Virus record (IMG/VR): IMGVR_UViG_3300016457_000131
Location: 1 to 27,325 of that record
DNA length: 27,325 bases
Strand: one strand, 5' to 3'
DNA from: a virus
Part shown: positions 1,395-18,265 of the stretch, piece by piece
Layout: the number at the start of each line of letters is the position of its first letter
Position numbering within the stretch: position 1 is the stretch's first letter
The notes under the pieces: model-generated
Told to the model about the DNA's origin: nothing
Database searches by the model: none
The model's input: the letters and a program-made list of their open reading frames with translations, nothing else
Translations under genes and position numbers: made by a program

Positions 1395-1757
1395 TCATCT
1401 CCCTATAATGTTTATTCTTGCTGTATTCCTAAACTCCTCATAATCACAATATATATGCATTACTCCACTTGAAGACCTCGCCGAAGTAAAAGCAGTTGTA
1501 TATCCTGTCAGTGGCTCTAAATCTCCACTTGGGCAGCACTTACTCCAATAAATTTTCGTAGCGTCTAAATCTACTTCTTCGCCCTCTTCACTATATCCTG
1601 TAACGAATAGGTCAATACTTTCCTCTGCTTCTATATTCGCACTGTGCGGAGTAATTTCTATACAATATAATTCAGGTTCGATAGGTGGGTCAGGTATTGG
1701 ACTACACCCTACAAGAAAAGCCAGCATTAATATAAATATTATAAAGTATTTGTTCAT
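1395..1757 (-). CDS. Phage-encoded lipoprotein with Ig-like (Big-type) domain
   Basis: 120 aa. A lipoprotein signal peptide (MNKYFIIFILMLAFLVGC) ends in the lipobox L-V-G-C, so Cys18 would be lipidated. A proline-rich linker (PIPDPPIEPE) is followed by a beta-rich domain with the spacing of a bacterial Ig-like (BIG2-type) fold, with phrases such as ITPHSANIEAEESIDLFVTG and four further cysteines. It lies four bases from the TM/coiled-coil gene. Possible roles are outer-membrane spanin partner, superinfection exclusion or surface display. None can be chosen from sequence. A lipidated, exported product in a late phage operon is notable in itself. Confidence 0.8.
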   Translation of the reverse strand: MNKYFIIFILMLAFLVGCSPIPDPPIEPELYCIEITPHSANIEAEESIDLFVTGYSEEGEEVDLDATKIYWSKCCPSGDLEPLTGYTTAFTSARSSSGVMHIYCDYEEFRNTARINIIGR

Positions 1758-4989: not shown

Positions 4990-7900
4990 TTATTTGTAGC
5001 CATATCTTTCCAACCTCTCTCTTAGTAAATTGCTATATTTCACTACAAGCGCTTGATTATTTGCCTTCTTCGCTTTTGTTATATTCCCCTGTAAGACTTT
5101 ATAAGTTTTATAAAAACCATCTATCCTATTTAACTCCCTTATCTCTGCCCTGGTAGCAATCCCAGATTGTTTTTTCTGTCTTAACACTTCCCAATCGGAG
5201 AAATATTCGTTTAGCTGTCTCTTTGGGTAACTCGGATCTCTTAACATTAAATCCCCTATAACCGGAAGATCGGTCAATTCCTCTCCTGTTATCCTAAACT
5301 GTCTTAAAAACCCACCGGAGTAACTATCTAACATATAATCTAACTGTATAGGTGATAATTGAATACCAATTTTATCCATTCCTTTTGATAATTTAATGGC
5401 CAATCTCGTTGTGTAATCCCTCTTCCTCTCAGTAGGATATAGATATTGCATACCTTCGGATTCTATCGGGACACCTAAATAGTTTTTATTAGTGGCCACA
5501 CTTATAGCCGGTTGAAACACTGATGGGGTCGGATCAGGTATCTGTGCTTTGGCCAAATCGAGTAATCCTTCTAAAGATTTACTATCTTTATCCTTCATAG
5601 TGTCTAATACCGCCTGAGGCGCGGCCATAAATATTATTCCAAGTTCAAAAGGTATCGGTAATCTATATACGTGATCTTCTATCTCAAAGAATAAGTTATT
5701 ATATTTATATGCTGGGGGTAAATTCTTATACCAATCTTTATCTTTATTCCTGTACCAGGAAGTTACTGCTATAGTAGTAAGCCATAATGCACCTTTAACA
5801 AAAGTTTGTATCGGTCTCTCCCTTATACTTCTATATAATTTCTCCGGACCACGTATTGAAACATTAAAGAAAGCTGTTACCTGATTAATCTGTTTAGCCC
5901 ACTTCCCGGACTTGGTAAAGTTTACCGTTACGTCCTGGGCGTCACAGAAGGCCTGTATAAAAGCGTCCTCTTCTGTCCAGTCCGAATGATCCTTTTGCCA
6001 CTTCTCGGAAGTATATTTTTTATAAGAGGCTTCTATCTCGGCACTTCTCGGTCCCATCTCCGTTATTGATACAATATCAGCCAGGGTATTTACAGGATGT
6101 TTAACGACGTGCAATACCTTGCCTAATTTACCTAATTTATTGTCTAACATTTCATCATAACTATTTTGTACCGAAGCCCTATCAAAACCTATCTGCCCGG
6201 ATAGACCGCCACCTAATTTCTTAAATCTCCAGGTAGCCTCTCCCGGCTTTGTCATCATTTCTTGATAGTAGCCCTTTATTGGATCGAAAATCGTTGTATT
6301 ATTTCTTTTGGAGAATACCACATAAGAGAAAGCGTCTCTAAATGGATTCCTGGCTAATCCAAAAGATAGTTTTAACCCTGTAGCCCCTAATCTAAGCATA
6401 CGTGAGAAGGGTGCAAATACCTTTGTAATAGCCCCTAATTTTAATGGATCTACTCCTTTGAAGGCTTCATATAAATCAGGATGTATTTCGTAAAATTCCT
6501 GTTTCCCGTCTCTCCAAATAGATACAATATTCTCCTTTCCGCTATACTTAAAGTCCTGGGTAAACACAGTAAGAAATTCATTATAAGTGTTGCCGCTTGT
6601 CATACCTTCTTCACCTGAGGCAATCTCGTCCAAGTAGCCCTTTATCTGATTAGCACTAAATGTCGTAGCTTTCATAGGTGCAGGGACTTTTGTAATAAAA
6701 CCGCCTACCCCGTGTTCGTAAGCTAAATCTATAAAAGCCTTAGCAATTCTTATTTTCTGAGCTTTAGCGATTAATTCCCTTGTCTGCGTTATTAAGGATT
6801 CGATCGGATTGATAATTGGTCTCCCGCTTCCCTTAATAGTTTTTACTGCTTTACCGGTATCTACATAACCACCTACTCCTTTAGTAACATTAATCTCTTC
6901 TAAAAATGCTCTCTTAAACGGAAGATAGATAGGGTTAAGGTCTCTCATTAGTTTTGCGGTTTCTTCGCTTAAACCCCCTGCCCGGACGATCCAGTCTAAC
7001 ATATGATTAGACCATTCAGTTACTCTTTTAGCAGTTGACTTCCAACCCTTGTCTTTATATTTTTCCACTATAAACCTGGCGTCATCTAAATCAAAACCGC
7101 TTTCGATATCCCTTGCTGACAAGTTTAAAGCTCTCACACCTACGGCGTAAGCAATGAATTGAGGCATTTCGCTATTGGGGATATCTTTAAGTACCTCTAC
7201 TAAACTATCACCTACTACGTTTCCGTGTTCGTCTATTGCCTTGTCCATTACAAAAGTCCTGGCTATTGCTCCCGATTTTGCTTTAGAGTATTCCATTAAT
7301 AAAGCCGGGTTTTTAGAAGGCGGGAGTTTTCTACCTATAATCTCTTCTATCTTTTTAGTTATTTTTTGAGGGAAATAAAACTCATCATTAAATCTTATAT
7401 TGATCCACTCGAGGGCTTTCATTAGTTTTGCCCCTATACCTCTTGTTTTACTATGTTCACCCTTCCAGTCAATGTGTTGGATTATCCTATTCTCCGCTCC
7501 CTGTTTATTCCATATATCTAATTTCTGTTTAAACAGATCTAAATTCTTTTTTAGTTCCGGGAATTGAGGTAATATTTTCTCATTAAAATATTTATGGAAA
7601 TTAGGTGCTTTCTTCTTTCCTATCCCCATAGTAAGCTCATATCTCATATATTCGGCAAACCCTTCAGCTGTTCTTCTCCCGTTTTGTGTCTGATCATAGT
7701 CTAAATCGGCTAATTCTTTTGTAAACTCTCCGGTGATCCCTTTTCTTTCCCCCCACTTCCATAAGTTATATAACTTCTTCGTTATCTTTGAATCAATACC
7801 GTGAGCTATTTCGTGAGCAGCAACCGCTAACTCTCCCCACTTGGCCATTCTTACTATTTGTTTTTTGTAGTAAAATACTCCGGCTGCCTTCCACTTATGG

Positions 7901-10900
7901 GTAGCTTTACTTTTTATCGGGAAACCAAAGGCTTTATCCGCCCAGGTCATTATTTCAGTCTTATTAATCCTCTTGGGAGTGGTCTCTTCTTTCTCCATTT
8001 CCTGACCCCACGTTCTGGCGGATAATTCCTGCTCCTCGACTTGAGGCTCTTCCATTCCCGGTATCAAGGTTTTTTGTTTCTTGGTTGGTCTTTCAAGGAA
8101 GGCCGCTTCTCCTTCTTTTTTTATTTTAGGTTTTTTTACTTTAACTTCTACTTTTGGCTTTACTCCACCGGGTATATCCCACACTTTAAAGGGCAATATT
8201 TCATCTTCGTACCTTACGGGCATTAATACCGCCTGGATTTTGTTAGTTTCTGGGTCTACAAAAGAGACCATATCAGTTTGTTTTTTACCTAATTGTATAT
8301 CAGCATTAGGTAACCATTTATTCATCATATTGAGGTAATTAGTGTTAACCTGGACTTGTAGATTGCCATTGCTTAATATGGCAAAATTATCATTCATAGC
8401 CCTTGTATACCCCTGGATATATGCTTTGTCTTTAGTCCTTACTTTTTCAGCACTTTTAACAACATCTTTCCAATTCGGGAATGGGCGGTCATCTACTATT
8501 TTTTTGAAATAATCCTCGGTATATTTCTCTGCCTCTGCTTTGCTAATATCTGGTAATCTTTTCATATAGTCTTTAACTTGTTTATTAAACATTCTCTTTT
8601 TTTGGTCTGCAATAACCTCATCTGCGACTTTATCATCTATAAAAATCCAATGAGAATCAGTTATTTTATGTACTTTTTCTCCTGCCAATATCCCTGTAAT
8701 AGCAAAATCTTCATCTTTCCAAAGGTCTATATCGGGTTTACCTACTTTTTTAAGTAATTTCCCTTCAGGGTCTTTGAACGTTTTAACGTTTTCTAATAGT
8801 GTATTAACTTCTTTGCGAGATAATTTCTCCCAGGAAGCCTTACCAAGTCTAACTGCCTCTGCCTCGAGTGCTTTCAATGTATTCTCTTCTGATAAAGCTG
8901 TTTTTGGCGGTATATATGTCTCAGGAGTTTCTTTTGGTTTTTCTTCCGGAGTTTCTTGGCCGGCTTTATGTCTCTCTAATAGAACGTCATTAAGAGAATT
9001 TTCAACCCAATCCGCATTATCGTATCTATCTTCAAGGAATATTTTATGCTTACGAAATTCAGAAAGCAGTTCTTTTATTTTATCGACAGACAATAAGGAA
9101 AGGCCTGTTTTGCCGGATTTGTTCACTTGATCTAATGCTTGGAGAAGTTGCGGGTCTAGTCTGGCTTCTTCTGGCTTGGCTGTGACTTGGTTGTAGAAGT
9201 CGGTAGCTTTTTTAAGAAAAGTATCTCCAAAACTATCTCTGCCTAATAGATTTTGTTCATATTTTAATTTATTTAATGGTTTTTTTAATTCATCTATCCT
9301 GTTTCTTATTGAAGACGCTTTTTTCTCGGTCATATTAACTTCTAAAGAATTTAATAAGTCTTCTTTTTGTTTTTCAATCTTATCTATCTTTTTTTGATAT
9401 TTATCAAAAATTATAGTTCGTTCATATTCTGGTAGATACTCCTCTGCACTCTTATACTTCCTCGCTTCCTCTGCCAGTGGCTCAAGATCCTTTGGTATTG
9501 GCTCTTCTTTTGGTACTTCCGGTTCTACCCTTAATTGATCTAAAGCTGCTTGGGCTTTTTCTATTGCTCTTTGTGCTTCGGGATAATTCTCTGCACCACC
9601 AAAATCATTCTTTAAGTTATTTATCGCGGCCTGTAAATCTTGTTCACCATAATAAATAGGATAATCCTTCTTCTTTTTCTTATTTACCTCAAAATGTTGT
9701 TCAAAGATCAATTGTGCTTGCCGTGCCAATAATATAGGTTCTGTAGGATAGGATTCTAATTCTCTACCGATAACTAAAGGATTAGTATAATTATTCGGGT
9801 TAAATTCACCCTCTCTTGTGGCAGTAGGTTCTTTAACTTCTACTTCTGGGGTCTCTTTCTCAAAATAATTTTTTTCCTTAAATTGGTAGCTGGTTACTTC
9901 TTCTAACCCTAATATAACTTTTGCCTTATTCTCTTTTTGGAGTGCTTCTTTATTCTTCTTGAGATTTACCAACTCTTCATCTTTTAAAAAGGGGTTTCTC
10001 ATTTCCTTCTCTATCTCTTCTAATAGATAACTCTTAGCTATTTTTGCGTCGTGAATATCTCTTTCGTTACCAATTATCTCGACAACCTCTTCTTTGCCCT
10101 CAACTGTCGGCTTCACTTCTGGTTCTTTTGGTATCTCAACTTCCTCTTTTAAGGCAGTCTTTATATTATTCTCAGCTATCTTCTGCTTTAATCTTTCATT
10201 GATGTTAGATCTTATATTTGCTCCCATACCGAATATAGCCCAGGGGGCAGTAGCCATAAAGGTCTTTAATGTAGTCTCCGGGATTTTCTCTAATAGACTT
10301 TTATTCTCTCTAAATACATTAACAGCTGCTTCCTGCATACCAAGCTGGATATTTTCTTCCATTATCTCAGCTCCTTCTACTGCGAAAAAGGTTTTTACCC
10401 CTGATTTGGCTATACTTAAAGCAGTCCTTTTAGTAATCTCTTTTTTTATACCTTTAAACAGCAATTTCTTAAAAGGCTTAGATACTGCGGCTAATAATGG
10501 TAAATCTCCCAATACTTCTACACTTGCTATTGCTACACCAAGAGGAACGGCTATTTTAGACGCCTGCTCTTCTGTTGCACCGTTGGCAACTAATTCTTCC
10601 CATACATCCTGGGATTGTGAAGGTGTTGCTACTGCTACACCCGCCGCCATGCCTAACAATGGATTACCCGTTGCGGCTGTTACTCCCACTGTAGTCCCCA
10701 TAACACTAAGCATAAAGGCAGCAGATTGAGAGGCTTCATACCCCCAATAGGCAGGGTCTAATAATATCTTAGGATTTTTCTTTACATTCTCTATTACTCC
10801 CTGACTCCACTCAGGACGAGGTACTAATTCGGGGTGTTCCACCAACCATTTATCGTAACGTTCTTCTGCTTTATGATATTTCTCTTTATATATTTCCCTC

Positions 10901-11685
10901 TTTTCTTTATTGACCTCATTTACCTTTTTAATCTGTTCTTCTGATAGTCCGATGGGGAGTCCCTGTCTCTTATAATATTTCTGATCTTCAAGTTTAACGT
11001 CTGCATAAATAAGGTTAGGCAAGGCGGCATTAAAATACTGTTTAGTATTATGGAATATACCGCTTGAACCCAGTCTGAAAGCGTCAAAACTATCTTTTAA
11101 GTCACCTTCCGGGATATATTCAGGCTCAGCTTCTTCTCGTGCTTGGGTCTGGATATACTGGTTATAAATTCCAATATTCGCATTAAACGATTTGCTCTCA
11201 CTATCTAATGTTACGTAAAGTTTTTTATGCTTTTCAGTATCTTCTTTCAATTTATCTACTAATTCATTATGTTGAGCCACTAACCCGGATCTCTTTTGAT
11301 TAATACGGAACTGCATTTCTGGTGTTGCTGTCTGCATTTCTTCGTCTATATTATCAATCTCTTGCGATAATCCTTCCCATATTTCATAATCAGTATCTAA
11401 GGTTTTACCTAAGTCATCATAGGCTTTACTCATAGCAATTAAGTTATTTTCCTGTACCTTCATATCTTCTAATTTAGGAACGATAGGTTCTTCGACTTCT
11501 GGAATTTCCACTTTAGGTTTAGGTGCAGTACCAAATATCTCAGCAGAGGTTTTTATCCCTTTAGTTGCTTCTTCTTCTTTTTTAATAAGGTCAGGTATAC
11601 CAAAATTACCGCCAAACTGACTGCCTAATGGTTTAGCTTTTGGTTTCCCAAATATATCTTCACTTTTTAATAAACCGGTTTCCAT
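4990..11685 (-). CDS. Giant polyvalent internal virion protein with HExxH metallopeptidase and LPD38-like C-terminus
   Basis: 2231 aa. In order: a charged N-terminus with two SxEIFG/SEDIFG-like motifs; coiled coil (about 70-175); a Gly/Ala-rich hydrophobic block (about 320-410, e.g. GTTVGVTAATGNPLLGMAAG); long Lys/Glu-rich helices; a beta-rich domain (about 985-1165) ending in AVLMPVRYED; a linker; a zinc peptidase with AAHEIAHGID (H1291, E1292, H1295) and EGFAEY about 45 residues later (E1341 or E1345 as third ligand); and a C-terminal region from about 1750 with FAPFSRMLRLGATGLKLSFG and ARNPFRDAF, typical of Large Polyvalent-protein-associated Domain 38. Such proteins are packaged and ejected with DNA (polyvalent proteins, Iyer et al.). 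The hydrophobic block could help membrane passage. The gene overlaps its upstream neighbour by 19 bp. Confidence 0.85.
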   Translation of the reverse strand: METGLLKSEDIFGKPKAKPLGSQFGGNFGIPDLIKKEEEATKGIKTSAEIFGTAPKPKVEIPEVEEPIVPKLEDMKVQENNLIAMSKAYDDLGKTLDTDYEIWEGLSQEIDNIDEEMQTATPEMQFRINQKRSGLVAQHNELVDKLKEDTEKHKKLYVTLDSESKSFNANIGIYNQYIQTQAREEAEPEYIPEGDLKDSFDAFRLGSSGIFHNTKQYFNAALPNLIYADVKLEDQKYYKRQGLPIGLSEEQIKKVNEVNKEKREIYKEKYHKAEERYDKWLVEHPELVPRPEWSQGVIENVKKNPKILLDPAYWGYEASQSAAFMLSVMGTTVGVTAATGNPLLGMAAGVAVATPSQSQDVWEELVANGATEEQASKIAVPLGVAIASVEVLGDLPLLAAVSKPFKKLLFKGIKKEITKRTALSIAKSGVKTFFAVEGAEIMEENIQLGMQEAAVNVFRENKSLLEKIPETTLKTFMATAPWAIFGMGANIRSNINERLKQKIAENNIKTALKEEVEIPKEPEVKPTVEGKEEVVEIIGNERDIHDAKIAKSYLLEEIEKEMRNPFLKDEELVNLKKNKEALQKENKAKVILGLEEVTSYQFKEKNYFEKETPEVEVKEPTATREGEFNPNNYTNPLVIGRELESYPTEPILLARQAQLIFEQHFEVNKKKKKDYPIYYGEQDLQAAINNLKNDFGGAENYPEAQRAIEKAQAALDQLRVEPEVPKEEPIPKDLEPLAEEARKYKSAEEYLPEYERTIIFDKYQKKIDKIEKQKEDLLNSLEVNMTEKKASSIRNRIDELKKPLNKLKYEQNLLGRDSFGDTFLKKATDFYNQVTAKPEEARLDPQLLQALDQVNKSGKTGLSLLSVDKIKELLSEFRKHKIFLEDRYDNADWVENSLNDVLLERHKAGQETPEEKPKETPETYIPPKTALSEENTLKALEAEAVRLGKASWEKLSRKEVNTLLENVKTFKDPEGKLLKKVGKPDIDLWKDEDFAITGILAGEKVHKITDSHWIFIDDKVADEVIADQKKRMFNKQVKDYMKRLPDISKAEAEKYTEDYFKKIVDDRPFPNWKDVVKSAEKVRTKDKAYIQGYTRAMNDNFAILSNGNLQVQVNTNYLNMMNKWLPNADIQLGKKQTDMVSFVDPETNKIQAVLMPVRYEDEILPFKVWDIPGGVKPKVEVKVKKPKIKKEGEAAFLERPTKKQKTLIPGMEEPQVEEQELSARTWGQEMEKEETTPKRINKTEIMTWADKAFGFPIKSKATHKWKAAGVFYYKKQIVRMAKWGELAVAAHEIAHGIDSKITKKLYNLWKWGERKGITGEFTKELADLDYDQTQNGRRTAEGFAEYMRYELTMGIGKKKAPNFHKYFNEKILPQFPELKKNLDLFKQKLDIWNKQGAENRIIQHIDWKGEHSKTRGIGAKLMKALEWINIRFNDEFYFPQKITKKIEEIIGRKLPPSKNPALLMEYSKAKSGAIARTFVMDKAIDEHGNVVGDSLVEVLKDIPNSEMPQFIAYAVGVRALNLSARDIESGFDLDDARFIVEKYKDKGWKSTAKRVTEWSNHMLDWIVRAGGLSEETAKLMRDLNPIYLPFKRAFLEEINVTKGVGGYVDTGKAVKTIKGSGRPIINPIESLITQTRELIAKAQKIRIAKAFIDLAYEHGVGGFITKVPAPMKATTFSANQIKGYLDEIASGEEGMTSGNTYNEFLTVFTQDFKYSGKENIVSIWRDGKQEFYEIHPDLYEAFKGVDPLKLGAITKVFAPFSRMLRLGATGLKLSFGLARNPFRDAFSYVVFSKRNNTTIFDPIKGYYQEMMTKPGEATWRFKKLGGGLSGQIGFDRASVQNSYDEMLDNKLGKLGKVLHVVKHPVNTLADIVSITEMGPRSAEIEASYKKYTSEKWQKDHSDWTEEDAFIQAFCDAQDVTVNFTKSGKWAKQINQVTAFFNVSIRGPEKLYRSIRERPIQTFVKGALWLTTIAVTSWYRNKDKDWYKNLPPAYKYNNLFFEIEDHVYRLPIPFELGIIFMAAPQAVLDTMKDKDSKSLEGLLDLAKAQIPDPTPSVFQPAISVATNKNYLGVPIESEGMQYLYPTERKRDYTTRLAIKLSKGMDKIGIQLSPIQLDYMLDSYSGGFLRQFRITGEELTDLPVIGDLMLRDPSYPKRQLNEYFSDWEVLRQKKQSGIATRAEIRELNRIDGFYKTYKVLQGNITKAKKANNQALVVKYSNLLRERLERYGYK

Positions 11686-14474: not shown

Positions 14475-15890
14475 TTATCTCATCCCCCTACGTAAGAATT
14501 GAAATAAACATCCTAAAAATTCAAAGTGGTTGGAAGCTGATATCTTAAATAAGAAATGCTTCCCATATATTCTTACTGCTAAATGCTTAACGATAATATC
14601 TGCTGTGCCAGTCAAAGCTACTGACCCTACACTCTGCCAAGTTGCCTCGTGATCTCTCTTTACCTCTACGGTTGCAGTCCCCGATGATTCACTGTTAAAA
14701 TATAGGTGCAAGTCTAAAATCCTTTTATAGAAGGCAAGCCCTCTCTTATCCGTCAAATCTGTAGAAATTACAAAATAAGCCGTATAAGCTGACCCATCGT
14801 CTGTTTCTGACCTTTGTGATTGGTAGGTGTACCCCGAATAATCACTGCATATATCTATCTTTGTACCTGTCGGTATAGTTCCTTGAGCCGCTGTCTGAAA
14901 TTCTACCCAATCACCATAAGAAGTACCGATACTATTTGTCGCATAAGCCCTAATCCAGTAAGTGGTATTAGCAGATAGACCTGTTAATCCTTTAGTAAAA
15001 GCACCTGCTGAAAAAGACCCGTCATCGTGTGCGTCCCAGGTGTCTACTTTAGTTAGCCCATATTTAAACCCTCTTACTGTTGCATTTTCCCCACCTAAAG
15101 CGGTAATGTTTCCGTTGCCTGTTACTGTAGTAGGTAGAACATCAGTCGGGCTTTGAGTGGTAACAGTCGGAGCTACCTTATCAGTAGTAAAGTTTACTTC
15201 TGCACCGTAACCCGTCCCTTCTGAATTAATTGCGTATGCCTTAACATAATACTTCACTCCTGGACTTAATCCCGTCATTGCCGCAGTAAAAGCACCTATC
15301 CCAAAGTCCCCTTCTTCTTCTACCTTATCATCTGCCGTTGTTGGGCTTCCTGTCGTGTTATAACATACGCCTCTTTTAGTACAATTCTCGTCACCTGTAT
15401 CGGTAATTTCACCATTACCAGTAGCGGAATTATGAGTGATATCTGTAACTGCTTGAGTAGTAACAGTAGGAGCTACAATAACGTGATAAAACATAGCTTC
15501 CATAAGTAAATGAGAACCTATTTCCCCACCGGTACTATTGTAGAATCTAAATCTCATTGCTGTGACGGAATATATTGCACCAAGTTCCTTTTCTATCCAC
15601 GTATATCTAGTAAAAGCACCTGAATAAATATTATTCCAAGCCCCTGAATAATATACATCTACGTCAACTTCACTAATATCGCCTCCCCCACTATCTTCAA
15701 GGTAATATTTTATTTTAGAACAATTAATAGCCCCGATGGTAAGTTCTATAAAATTGCTCCAACTTCCACCAGAGATAGTTGTGTATGCTCCATTCGAAGT
15801 TTCTACAATGCCATCATAAGCTTGGCTTTCGTATGTCCAGCTACTATTTGGGTCATTAAATCCAGTTGGGCTTACATATCCGCTTGCCAT
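14475..15890 (-). CDS. Structural protein with two fibronectin type III-like domains
   Basis: 471 aa, all beta-rich, starting at ATG with AGGAGT upstream. An N-terminal jelly-roll-like domain (about 1-135) is followed by two tandem FN3-like domains at about 140-236 and 240-334. Each starts APTVTTQ and has T.NG.I...G.EN...RG...Y, then the FN3 core G.TGLS...YY(V/I)(K/R)AYA.NS.G. A further domain covers 340-471. FN3-like domains decorate many phage virions and help bind carbohydrate or cell surfaces. The protein is probably a tail appendage or minor virion protein. There is no signal peptide, unlike the fibre-like gene at 2370. Confidence 0.8.
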   Translation of the reverse strand: MASGYVSPTGFNDPNSSWTYESQAYDGIVETSNGAYTTISGGSWSNFIELTIGAINCSKIKYYLEDSGGGDISEVDVDVYYSGAWNNIYSGAFTRYTWIEKELGAIYSVTAMRFRFYNSTGGEIGSHLLMEAMFYHVIVAPTVTTQAVTDITHNSATGNGEITDTGDENCTKRGVCYNTTGSPTTADDKVEEEGDFGIGAFTAAMTGLSPGVKYYVKAYAINSEGTGYGAEVNFTTDKVAPTVTTQSPTDVLPTTVTGNGNITALGGENATVRGFKYGLTKVDTWDAHDDGSFSAGAFTKGLTGLSANTTYWIRAYATNSIGTSYGDWVEFQTAAQGTIPTGTKIDICSDYSGYTYQSQRSETDDGSAYTAYFVISTDLTDKRGLAFYKRILDLHLYFNSESSGTATVEVKRDHEATWQSVGSVALTGTADIIVKHLAVRIYGKHFLFKISASNHFEFLGCLFQFLRRGMR

Positions 15891-15906
15891 TAATTACTCC
15901 TTCTCT

Positions 15907-15935
15907 TTGACTTTTGATATTCTTTGTGTTATTTT
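15907..15935 (+). promoter_or_regulatory. Candidate promoter for the plus-strand lipoprotein
   Basis: TTGACT (15907-15912), 17 bases, TATTTT (15930-15935). The -10-like box ends six bases before the ATG at 15942, and no Shine-Dalgarno lies between, so a leaderless transcript is possible. It shares TTTGACTTTTG and TATTTT, at identical spacing, with the site at 4715. Confidence 0.5.
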
Positions 15936-15941
15936 TTAAAT

Positions 15942-16451
15942 ATGAAAATAATTATTTTGTTTTTGACATTAACTATTTTATTAACAGGTTGTTCTGTTTT
16001 TAATTTAAACGATTTTGTTTTACCTGATGATTTAGAGTTTATTAATACAATCAACAAATTAGACACCCCAGAGAAAATATGTAATTATATAAAAGAAAAT
16101 TTTACTTACAAAGAGAATCTTTTCTACAATCCCAGTCCTTATGAATTATGGTTAACCCAAGAAGGAGATTGTAATGATTTCTGCACCTTCGCTATATTTG
16201 CGGTAAATTACCATAACTACCCGACTTACCAAATACAAATATCTTTTAAAGGAACATTTATTAAACACGTGTTAGCTGTTTTTTTAGAGGATGGTAAGTA
16301 TACTTATCTAAATATCAAAGCTTACTATCCGCTCTATGCTTCAACTTTTAATGAAATTGTTTCGCATTATTTTATTGATCACGAGCTTGAATTAAAATCC
16401 TACAAAGTCTACGATTACAACAATAATTTAATTGAAAAGGTACAAAGATAA
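15942..16451 (+). CDS. Transglutaminase-like lipoprotein, plus-strand copy
   Basis: 169 aa from ATG 15942; a TTG at 15924 is in frame but unnecessary. A lipoprotein signal (MKIIILFLTLTILLTGC) ends in lipobox L-T-G-C, so Cys17 would be lipidated. The domain carries the papain/transglutaminase-like order: EGDCNDFCTFA with nucleophile Cys77 at a helix start, IKHVLAV with His109, and YTYLN with Asn124 at the usual Asp position. It would act outside the inner membrane. It is a clear paralogue of the minus-strand gene at 16453 (shared DDLEF, TPEKI, ENF.Y, SPY.LWL, GDCND, SYKV.DY). One base separates the two convergent stops. It could cross-link, cleave or simply mask an envelope target; activity is inferred. 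Confidence 0.8.
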   Translation: MKIIILFLTLTILLTGCSVFNLNDFVLPDDLEFINTINKLDTPEKICNYIKENFTYKENLFYNPSPYELWLTQEGDCNDFCTFAIFAVNYHNYPTYQIQISFKGTFIKHVLAVFLEDGKYTYLNIKAYYPLYASTFNEIVSHYFIDHELELKSYKVYDYNNNLIEKVQR

Positions 16452-16452
16452 C

Positions 16453-16974
16453 TTACTTAACTCCTGCCTCTATAATCTCCATTTTATAATCAAATACCTT
16501 ATAGCTCGTCCATTCCCAGCAGATATTATCGTTACAGCTTTTTTCAACTATTTCGCGAAATGTTTTATAGCCAGAAAAGTAAAATTGGTTATCTGTAAAA
16601 GAGTAACATCCCTCGTTATACACCGCTACATAATGAGTACATAAAGTATTCTTTAGATGAATTTCTATCTGATAAGTTTCTATCCCATGCCAATTAGCTA
16701 CCCAAATGCCAAAACAAGCCATATCGTTACAGTCACCATATTTAGTCTGTATGTTTAATAACCACAATTGGTAGGGACTGTAAGCACTCCATAGATTTAA
16801 TATGTATTCAAAATTCTCCTGCATATACTCACTAATCTTCTCAGGCGTGTTTAAACTCTCTACCACCGCAAGAAATTCAAGGTCATCAGGCATTACAAAA
16901 TCACCCAAGGTGTATATCCCGCAGCCGGATAGAAGTATCGTTAATATAATTAGTATGATTATTTTACGCTTCAA
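16453..16974 (-). CDS. Transglutaminase-like lipoprotein, minus-strand copy
   Basis: 173 aa if started at TTG 16974, which has GGTGAT upstream at suitable spacing and gives MKRKIIILIILTILLSGC, closely matching its paralogue's start. A longer TTG start at 17001 is less likely. Lipobox L-S-G-C puts the lipid on Cys18. Catalytic-like residues are Cys82 (YGDCNDMACFG), His114 (CTHYVAV) and Asp128 (YSFTDNQ), a complete Cys-His-Asp set. Six other cysteines are present. The start lies within the last codons of the nozzle gene, so it is translated with the late structural genes, whereas its paralogue is on the other strand. Substrate unknown. Confidence 0.8.
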   Translation of the reverse strand: MKRKIIILIILTILLSGCGIYTLGDFVMPDDLEFLAVVESLNTPEKISEYMQENFEYILNLWSAYSPYQLWLLNIQTKYGDCNDMACFGIWVANWHGIETYQIEIHLKNTLCTHYVAVYNEGCYSFTDNQFYFSGYKTFREIVEKSCNDNICWEWTSYKVFDYKMEIIEAGVK

Positions 16975-18265
16975 AATAATCACCGAAACAAGGTGTTGCA
17001 ATATCGATTTCCCCCCAGCTTCCGTTTTTGTAAGTTAAAACTTTGCTATTTAAGGCATTACTATACGGTATACTCCACCAAATCTCCCCAGTCTCATCAA
17101 TAAACTTTCCATAGACTAAATGAGCCGAAGAAGGCTCTATAAGTTTAACTATCGGGTCAATATTCTGAGATATCTCTCCTAATTCCATTTCTCTAAAAGT
17201 CATATCACTTGCAAACCAATAAACCCTACCGTCAGGATCTTCCACTATTGAATGATTAGATAAGTTACCTATTCCACCTGGCAATACTACCCAATTCCAA
17301 ACTTCGGATGTTGCAATAAGCCATTGTCGGATTGTGCTTAATTCCTTGAATATAATTAACTGCCCGTTATATATCTTGAAGCCCATTAAAAAATCTGACC
17401 CCTCTGTTTCCTTACTCCCTGCGTCTCCTGAACTCCAATCTGTTTCATCCCCTATATCAGACCAGCGTATCCTTTGAGGATAAGACACTCCGTTTTCGTA
17501 GGTATAGCCTAATATTAAATAATTCTCAAAAGTGGTAACAAACTTTGCTTTAGTTAAGAATGTGCTTGCGGCATATTCTATCCCCTGAAATTCTACTACT
17601 GTCCCCCCGCTTGTATATGTGGTATAAGCACTCGAATTTATACCGTCTAAAGTAAAGTTATCAACGTCTATAACGGTAACTACGAATTGTAAATTGTTTA
17701 CCTCGGTCATTCCGCCTACATTCTTAATGAAAACCCTATCCCCAGTAGTTAGACCGTGTGCCGCTGCTGTTATCTGACAAGGGTCTGCTTTGGTTGCTGC
17801 CGTGATATTAGTTGCCGTGGTATTCTGCAAAGGCATAAAATAACCGGTAGTATCCCAGACAAGCACCATATCAACGTTATTAGTGGCTATAACTTTATCG
17901 TTATAACTGACCGTGTCCCACTCCGTACAGTCTGATTTACAGACAAATTTAACGTCCCAGGCCTTAGTTCCAGTATTCCATAGATAAATATGTGCCTTAG
18001 TGAAAGCTAAAACATACTCCATCGCAGTAGACCGTTTAACAAAGCGGTGATAATGAAGAATCGGGAAAGTATCCGGGGTTTGAGTCTTATCACCTGACCC
18101 GTTAAGCATATCTGGCTCTCTCATTTGTCTACGCCTGACTTCTCCATATTTGCGGACAATGTTCATATTCTGCGTCTGCACCGTTTTATCTAATAAGATA
18201 ACGGGGAAGTCGTGCTTCTCACCTAAAACAGGGCTAAATATACCAAATAATTCTTTCCTGGCCAT
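16964..18265 (-). CDS. Tail nozzle / hub protein, P22 gp10-like, with FCCH-like insertion
   Basis: 433 aa. The pattern of repeated strands (VLAFTKAHIYLWN, DTVSYNDKVIATNN, RIRWSDIGDETDWSSGDAG, LIIFKELSTIRQW, DGRVYWFASDMTFREM, GEIWWSIPY) is typical of the beta-propeller nozzle or tail tubular proteins of podoviruses (P22 gp10/T7 gp12 type). An insertion at about 151-224 (DPCQITAAAHGLTTGDRVFI...V..NNFTLDG) resembles the FCCH-like module found in many phage structural proteins. It follows the gp4-like adaptor gene, the expected order. It would form the distal tail channel. It lacks a long C-terminal tip, and its end overlaps the lipoprotein gene. Confidence 0.85.
   Translation of the reverse strand: MARKELFGIFSPVLGEKHDFPVILLDKTVQTQNMNIVRKYGEVRRRQMREPDMLNGSGDKTQTPDTFPILHYHRFVKRSTAMEYVLAFTKAHIYLWNTGTKAWDVKFVCKSDCTEWDTVSYNDKVIATNNVDMVLVWDTTGYFMPLQNTTATNITAATKADPCQITAAAHGLTTGDRVFIKNVGGMTEVNNLQFVVTVIDVDNFTLDGINSSAYTTYTSGGTVVEFQGIEYAASTFLTKAKFVTTFENYLILGYTYENGVSYPQRIRWSDIGDETDWSSGDAGSKETEGSDFLMGFKIYNGQLIIFKELSTIRQWLIATSEVWNWVVLPGGIGNLSNHSIVEDPDGRVYWFASDMTFREMELGEISQNIDPIVKLIEPSSAHLVYGKFIDETGEIWWSIPYSNALNSKVLTYKNGSWGEIDIATPCFGDYFEA

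What the first reader, a model, noticed from the sequence alone, without database searches (positions are those of the whole stretch)
15942..16974. Tail-to-tail pair of paralogous transglutaminase-like lipoproteins on opposite strands
Two genes with one base between their stop codons encode lipoproteins that align over their whole length: lipobox, DDLEF, TPEKI, ENF.Y, SPY.LWL, GDCND, H.(L/Y)(A/V)V and SYKV.DY. One is read with the late structural operon; the other is on the opposite strand behind its own promoter-like site. Two diverged copies kept in a phage suggest two timings or two targets for an envelope-located Cys-His enzyme-like fold. This could be a previously undescribed superinfection-exclusion or host-envelope-modifying pair.
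Basis: partly seen in the sequence, partly recalled or inferred. Interest (0 to 1): 0.8.

Follow-up and report, generated by a model that had tools for sequence, protein, structure and literature searches.

The report
Phage envelope lipoproteins with protease-like fold
An uncultivated phage carries two distantly related genes, on opposite DNA strands, for small membrane-anchored proteins folded like cysteine proteases; one of them sits behind its own promoter in a position where related phages keep other antisense envelope genes, which suggests a role in remodelling or closing off the infected cell's surface.

Summary
Two lipoprotein genes, 15942-16451 (+) and 16453-16974 (-), are tail-to-tail with one base between the stop codons and 46% identical proteins (E 5e-43). 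Both predicted structures are confident and match the papain/transglutaminase-like cysteine protease CPR-C4 best; Cys and His are invariant in 20 relatives.

The interpretation needs correcting in two ways. The pair is not an in-genome duplication: the copies belong to two old subfamilies (AU test p 5e-11), and single intact copies are common in related phages. The inverted pair itself is peculiar to this phage.

The striking part is the + strand copy. It is the only clear gene against the late operon, the most AT-rich gene compared in the window, and it lies 6 nt behind a promoter (TTGACT-17-TGnTAT). In four related phages the few antisense genes of the late operon also encode envelope proteins (this family, an unrelated lipoprotein, a small membrane protein) behind a near-identical promoter. 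Phage T5 places its superinfection-exclusion lipoprotein gene llp the same way.

Best reading: an early-expressed envelope moron of superinfection-exclusion type carrying an enzyme fold, plus a late-operon relative. Fold, promoter and subfamily split are shown computationally; enzyme activity and exclusion are inferred.

The parts
15942..16451 (+). copy 1: transglutaminase-like lipoprotein, antisense to the late operon (169 aa; lipobox LTGC, lipid Cys17, Ser at +2; Cys77, His109, Asn124)
   Evidence: GC 27.3%, lowest of the genes compared in the window
15907..15935 (+). promoter of copy 1: TTGACT - 17 nt - (TGT)TATTTT, extended -10, ending 6 nt before the ATG
   Evidence: only strict hit in the window; top of 54,586 positions with a matrix built from the four other antisense promoters
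16453..16974 (-). copy 2: transglutaminase-like lipoprotein read with the late operon (173 aa; lipobox LSGC, lipid Cys18; Cys82, His114, Asp128)
16452..16452 (.). single base between the two stop codons
16170..16172 (+). codon of the catalytic-type Cys77 of copy 1 (GDCND)
   Evidence: invariant in 20 family members
16266..16268 (+). codon of His109 of copy 1
   Evidence: invariant in 20 family members
16964..18265 (-). tail gene 'tailB' upstream of copy 2 (overlaps it by 11 nt)
   Evidence: syntenic in related contigs
14475..15890 (-). fn3-like tail protein gene downstream of the slot; its Shine-Dalgarno-like AAGGAG (15897-15902) is back-to-back with the copy 1 promoter

Best explanation
Both genes encode small lipoproteins whose mature domain is a papain/transglutaminase-like cysteine hydrolase fold, closest to CPR-C4 and the vasohibins, tethered to the host envelope by an N-terminal lipid. 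Copy 1 is a moron-like cassette: one AT-rich gene with its own host-type promoter, inserted against the late operon next to tail genes, so that host RNA polymerase could express it from the start of infection. Copy 2 is read late with the tail genes. The most likely job of copy 1 is to modify or bind an envelope component of the infected cell so that further phages cannot infect it (superinfection exclusion, as with T5 Llp). Copy 2 would do the same or a related job late, for example protecting progeny from adsorbing to spent envelopes, or acting on a second target. Shown computationally: fold, invariant Cys and His, lipoprotein signals, the promoter and its recurrence, separate ancestry of the copies. 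Inferred: early expression, enzymatic activity, exclusion.
For: Fold: AF2 models pLDDT 87.5 and 88.5. Foldseek: CPR-C4 7ob6 TMq 0.68, E 5.7e-8 for copy 1 and TMq 0.62, E 9e-6 for copy 2; also vasohibins and the periplasmic protease LapG. An independent sequence profile hits CPR-C4 at E 8e-4. Pfam DUF553 above its cut-off for copy 1; Transglut_core or DUF553 matched by most of 19 members. Lipid-anchor Cys, catalytic-type Cys and His invariant in 20 members; Cys-His spacing of 32 in both copies, as in CPR-C4 C61-H93 (PMC9108980). Moron features: antisense, lowest GC among genes compared, own promoter. Survey of 30 related contigs: the four credible antisense genes of the late operon are all envelope-targeted, three of four with a scored promoter against 10 of 438 control genes (p 8e-5). 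A strict form of the promoter occurs in only 5 of 2.9 million IMG/VR contigs; 4 of them are ahead of antisense envelope genes of this phage group, including one new bicistron, while 51 ORFs behind a looser motif include no lipoprotein. Precedent: T5 llp lies antisense to pb5 behind an annotated early promoter and blocks the receptor FhuA (PMC9586334). Constraint: copy 2 against L007 dN/dS 0.17.
Against: No homology to any known exclusion protein: the Cor PHROG match covers only the signal peptide. The third triad position is not conserved (Asp/Asn/Ser), so catalysis is not assured. Many relatives are sense-strand members of late, lysis-adjacent or replication operons without a promoter of their own, so early expression is not a family rule. 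The copy 1 promoter is the weakest of the set (PWM 10 against 40-47 for the training sites, and close to background maxima in other contigs). Host unknown.
Confidence: 0.45

Rival explanations
1. Lysis accessory: a lipid-anchored cysteine amidase or isopeptidase that cleaves peptidoglycan cross-links or envelope proteins late in infection and helps the M15 endolysin.
For: Late-operon position of most copies; one relative (L007) lies just after a GH108-like muramidase (my reading of the sequence) and a zinc-ribbon gene; the fold also resembles the pseudomurein endoisopeptidase PeiP, weakly; a signal-less distant relative lies next to an M15 endolysin in L086.
Against: Copies also occur in replication-type modules (L076, L081, L085) and antisense behind host-type promoters, the wrong timing for lysis; no lysis-like family match.
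Confidence: 0.2
2. Receptor or envelope binder without catalysis: the fold is a scaffold, and the lipoprotein jams a receptor sterically as Llp and Rtp45 do.
For: Third triad residue variable (D/N/S); known exclusion lipoproteins act by binding the receptor.
Against: Cys and His are invariant in 20 diverse members, and in CPR-C4 and the vasohibins the third position is a backbone carbonyl, so its variation does not imply loss of catalysis.
Confidence: 0.15
3. Virion or tail-associated processing protein: the lipoproteins act on tail proteins or during DNA entry, hence the location between tail genes.
For: Frequent slot between tailB and the fn3 protein.
Against: Absent from the slot in several relatives (L024, L026, L031, L032, L033) and found far from the tail genes in others; signal peptide sends it to the envelope.
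Confidence: 0.1

Closest known systems
CPR-C4 / vasohibin-type cysteine proteases (PDB 7ob6; PMC9108980)
   Same: Best structural match of both copies; Cys-His spacing 32 as in C61-H93; polar but variable residue at the position of CPR-C4 Ser108 (His+15)
   Different: Phage-encoded, lipid-anchored, about 150-residue mature domain; about 17% identity; no activity shown; Leu-carbonyl position not verified
Pfam DUF553 / Transglut_core (papain-like superfamily)
   Same: GDC motif at the start of the core helix, His on the following strand; copy 1 above the DUF553 cut-off
   Different: Copy 2 below the cut-off; classical Asp of the triad replaced by Asn or Ser in many members
T5 Llp and other superinfection-exclusion lipoproteins (Cor, Rtp45)
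   Same: Small phage lipoprotein; gene antisense to tail genes behind a host-type (T5: annotated early) promoter, as llp beside pb5
   Different: No sequence relation outside the signal peptide; carries an enzyme-like fold; exclusion not tested

Membership tests
Papain/transglutaminase-like cysteine hydrolase superfamily | core fold: Cys at the N-terminus of a helix followed by a beta sheet bearing His | tested here: met
   AF2 models with helices starting at Cys77 and Cys82; Foldseek E 5.7e-8 and 9e-6
Papain/transglutaminase-like cysteine hydrolase superfamily | invariant Cys and His | tested here: met
   invariant in 20 members
Papain/transglutaminase-like cysteine hydrolase superfamily | third polar triad residue | tested here: inconclusive
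   mostly Asp, Asn or Ser at the aligned position
Papain/transglutaminase-like cysteine hydrolase superfamily | protease or transamidase activity | not testable with these tools
   needs an assay
DUF553 (PF04473) | score above the curated cut-off | tested here: inconclusive
   copy 1 23.0 bits over 20.5; copy 2 16.1 under 20.5
CPR-C4/vasohibin type | Leu backbone carbonyl as third catalytic element | not tested
Bacterial lipoprotein | N-terminal basic-hydrophobic signal and lipobox Cys | tested here: met
   19 of 20 members with a canonical-looking lipobox (L087 has LVEC); +2 residue S, G or K, never Asp
Phage moron | own promoter, orientation and composition unlike the surrounding operon, sporadic presence | tested here: met
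   the promoter is predicted, not mapped
Superinfection-exclusion lipoprotein | homology to Llp, Cor or Ltp-type proteins | tested here: not met
   PHROG Cor match limited to residues 1-20; no credible match in the phage collection (the weak Vibrio hits lie under unrelated annotated genes)
Superinfection-exclusion lipoprotein | confers resistance to infection | not testable with these tools
   needs an infection assay

The most novel reading that the evidence does not exclude
The late operons of this group of uncultivated podovirus-like phages carry a modular class of antisense, self-promoted envelope cassettes (a shared TTGACT-17-TGnTAT promoter, interchangeable cargo). One cargo is a lipid-anchored cysteine protease that excludes competing phages enzymatically, by cleaving or cross-linking a surface receptor, rather than by blocking it sterically as Llp and Rtp45 do.
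Probability: 0.2. Interest if true: 0.8.

Novelty: new variant of a known kind. Interest (0 to 1): 0.55.

Why it matters
The phage exclusion lipoproteins whose mechanism was read here (Llp, Rtp45) are tiny binders. A widespread phage lipoprotein family with an intact cysteine-protease-like fold would be a new type of envelope effector, and the recurring antisense promoter-plus-cargo layout gives a way to find more such genes by position and promoter rather than by homology. The family has no match in PHROGs beyond its signal peptide and was not found in the annotated phage records or in the species-genome scans made here, so it would go unannotated.

Tried and rejected
Weak tblastn hits in Vibrio phages lie under genes annotated as a 5' nucleotidase and an NTP pyrophosphohydrolase-like protein: rejected. 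PHROG Cor and spanin matches involve only the signal peptide where the stretch was shown: rejected as evidence of function. In-genome duplication: rejected by tree and AU test. Decay of one copy: rejected, both open, with intact motifs and pN well below pS (dS is saturated for several copy 1 pairs, so only the pN/pS ratio is usable there). Lysogeny-linked role: no tyrosine integrase in 18 related contigs and no serine recombinase in 14, though contigs may be incomplete. Two genome-contig scans found no cellular homologue by their peptide-pattern method; the genome search draws no relatives for a virus record. The loose promoter pattern is too common to define a regulon in IMG/VR; the strict form worked. 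Literature: no paper held joins superinfection exclusion, lipoprotein, phage and transglutaminase.

Full report
What is there. The window is an IMG/VR virus record of 27,325 bases. Its genes on the - strand run from a terminase through portal, scaffold, capsid and tail genes to a 2231-aa polyvalent (LPD38) protein and an M15 endolysin. Copy 1 (15942-16451) is the only clear gene on the + strand. It meets copy 2 (16453-16974, - strand) with one base between the stop codons. The proteins are 46% identical (E 5e-43), both with a basic-hydrophobic start and lipobox. The same DNA is 100% identical over 12.5 kb in two further contigs of metagenome 3300016457, so the pair is not the error of one assembly, although these may be the same virus population.

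What the proteins are. Copy 1 scores above the Pfam cut-off for DUF553 (transglutaminase-like), copy 2 below it; most of 19 family members match DUF553 or Transglut_core. AlphaFold2 models from family alignments are confident (pLDDT 87.5 and 88.5). Foldseek against the PDB puts CPR-C4, a cysteine protease with vasohibin-like structure, first for both (TMq 0.68, E 5.7e-8; TMq 0.62, E 9e-6), with vasohibins and the periplasmic protease LapG behind. A sequence-only profile search also finds CPR-C4 (E 8e-4). Cys and His are invariant in 20 members and 32 residues apart in both copies, the same as C61-H93 of CPR-C4. The third triad position is mostly Asp, Asn or Ser; at the equivalent place CPR-C4 has Ser108, judged dispensable there because a Leu carbonyl does the work. 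Activity is therefore plausible, not shown.

The family. Scans of IMG/VR with growing alignments and an HMM search of held loci gave 20 distinct proteins in 17 contigs. They sit in tail modules of the same podovirus-like group (between TTA-like and tailB, or between tailB and the fn3 protein), in other tail modules, after a muramidase-like gene, and in replication-type modules. Some members of the phage group lack the gene in that slot (L024, L026, L031, L032, L033), and four of 18 contigs searched have no match at all. Nothing turned up in the species genomes by the pattern-based scans, in the plasmid records, or in the annotated phage records beyond weak hits that I rejected. Terminase and portal resemble those of podoviruses such as Pseudomonas phage KPP25 and Burkholderia phages, which suggests a Gram-negative host; this is a hint only.

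Not a duplication. Copy 2 groups with L007 and L085, copy 1 with L025, L030, L018 and others; forcing the two copies together is rejected (p 5e-11). The phage L025, with a portal 92% and capsid 94% identical, has a single sense-strand copy of the copy 1 group in the same slot. Two other contigs carry two lipoprotein members: L028, one sense and one antisense but apart, and L077, in tandem. L086 has one lipoprotein plus a distant signal-less relative. Purifying selection is visible where dS is not saturated (copy 2 against L007 0.17; L025 against L030 0.12).

The antisense slot. Copy 1 has the lowest GC of the genes compared in the window (27.3%) and a promoter TTGACT-17-TATTTT, with TG before the -10 box, ending 6 nt before its ATG, back-to-back with the Shine-Dalgarno-like AAGGAG of the next late gene. 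It is the only strict extended -10 site in the window; 33 of 200 shuffles of the window also contain at least one such site somewhere, so its presence alone is weak and its place is what counts. In 30 related contigs the credible antisense genes inside the late operon are four: copy 1, a second member of this family (L028), an unrelated lipoprotein (L018) and an 89-aa membrane protein (L034). All four have the same promoter in the same place; three of four score 10 or more, against 10 of 438 control genes (p 8e-5; the fourth fails only on the last base of its -10 box). A strict form of the motif, written from the L028, L018 and L034 promoters, occurs in five of 2.9 million contigs: those three, one unrelated, and one new case. 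The new case is a two-gene antisense cassette (relatives of the L018 lipoprotein and of the L034 membrane protein) in the late operon of a 45.5-kb contig. As a control, 51 ORFs behind a looser form of the motif include no lipoprotein. With a matrix from the other four promoters, the copy 1 site ranks first of 54,586 positions in the window, but with a modest score close to the best background sites of other contigs, so it is the weakest member.

How it probably works. T5 has the same layout: llp, the lipoprotein that blocks the receptor FhuA, lies antisense beside the receptor-binding protein gene pb5 behind an annotated early promoter (PMC9586334). Rtp45 of phage Rtp is a second structurally studied exclusion lipoprotein (PMC12685063). 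The best reading is therefore an early envelope moron of exclusion type with an enzyme-like fold, plus a late-operon relative. Lysis aid, non-catalytic binder and virion-associated protein are the rivals. Steps shown computationally: fold, invariant residues, lipoprotein signal, promoter recurrence, separate ancestry. Steps inferred: early expression, catalysis, target and exclusion.

Noticed in passing
L213 (contig 3300031565_000079), 2518-3204; L214 12894-13599: Antisense two-gene cassette (NWT-type lipoprotein, then a small YPKYQI membrane protein) in the late operon behind the strict TTGACT-17-TATCTT promoter; relatives of the separate antisense genes of L018 and L034.
   Followed up: yes
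L214, promoter near 8358 and ORF 8100-8306 (-): A weaker copy of the same promoter lies ahead of a small HTH (XRE-like by eye) regulator in the same phage.
   Followed up: no
L086 11613-12113: Distant signal-less relative of the family (profile E 6e-8) next to an M15 endolysin, besides a lipoprotein copy in the same contig.
   Followed up: partly
L085 1000-1073: tRNA-Ile (gat) directly upstream of a family member.
   Followed up: no
L079, L086, L087, upstream of the family gene: Sense-strand copies with their own near-consensus promoters (TTGTAA or TTGAAA, 17 nt, TATAAT).
   Followed up: partly
window 1395-1757 (-): A further 120-aa lipoprotein, Ig-like by eye, next to the endolysin; no Pfam match.
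   Followed up: no
window 4990-11685 (-): 2231-aa polyvalent protein with an LPD38 domain in a podovirus-like late operon.
   Followed up: no
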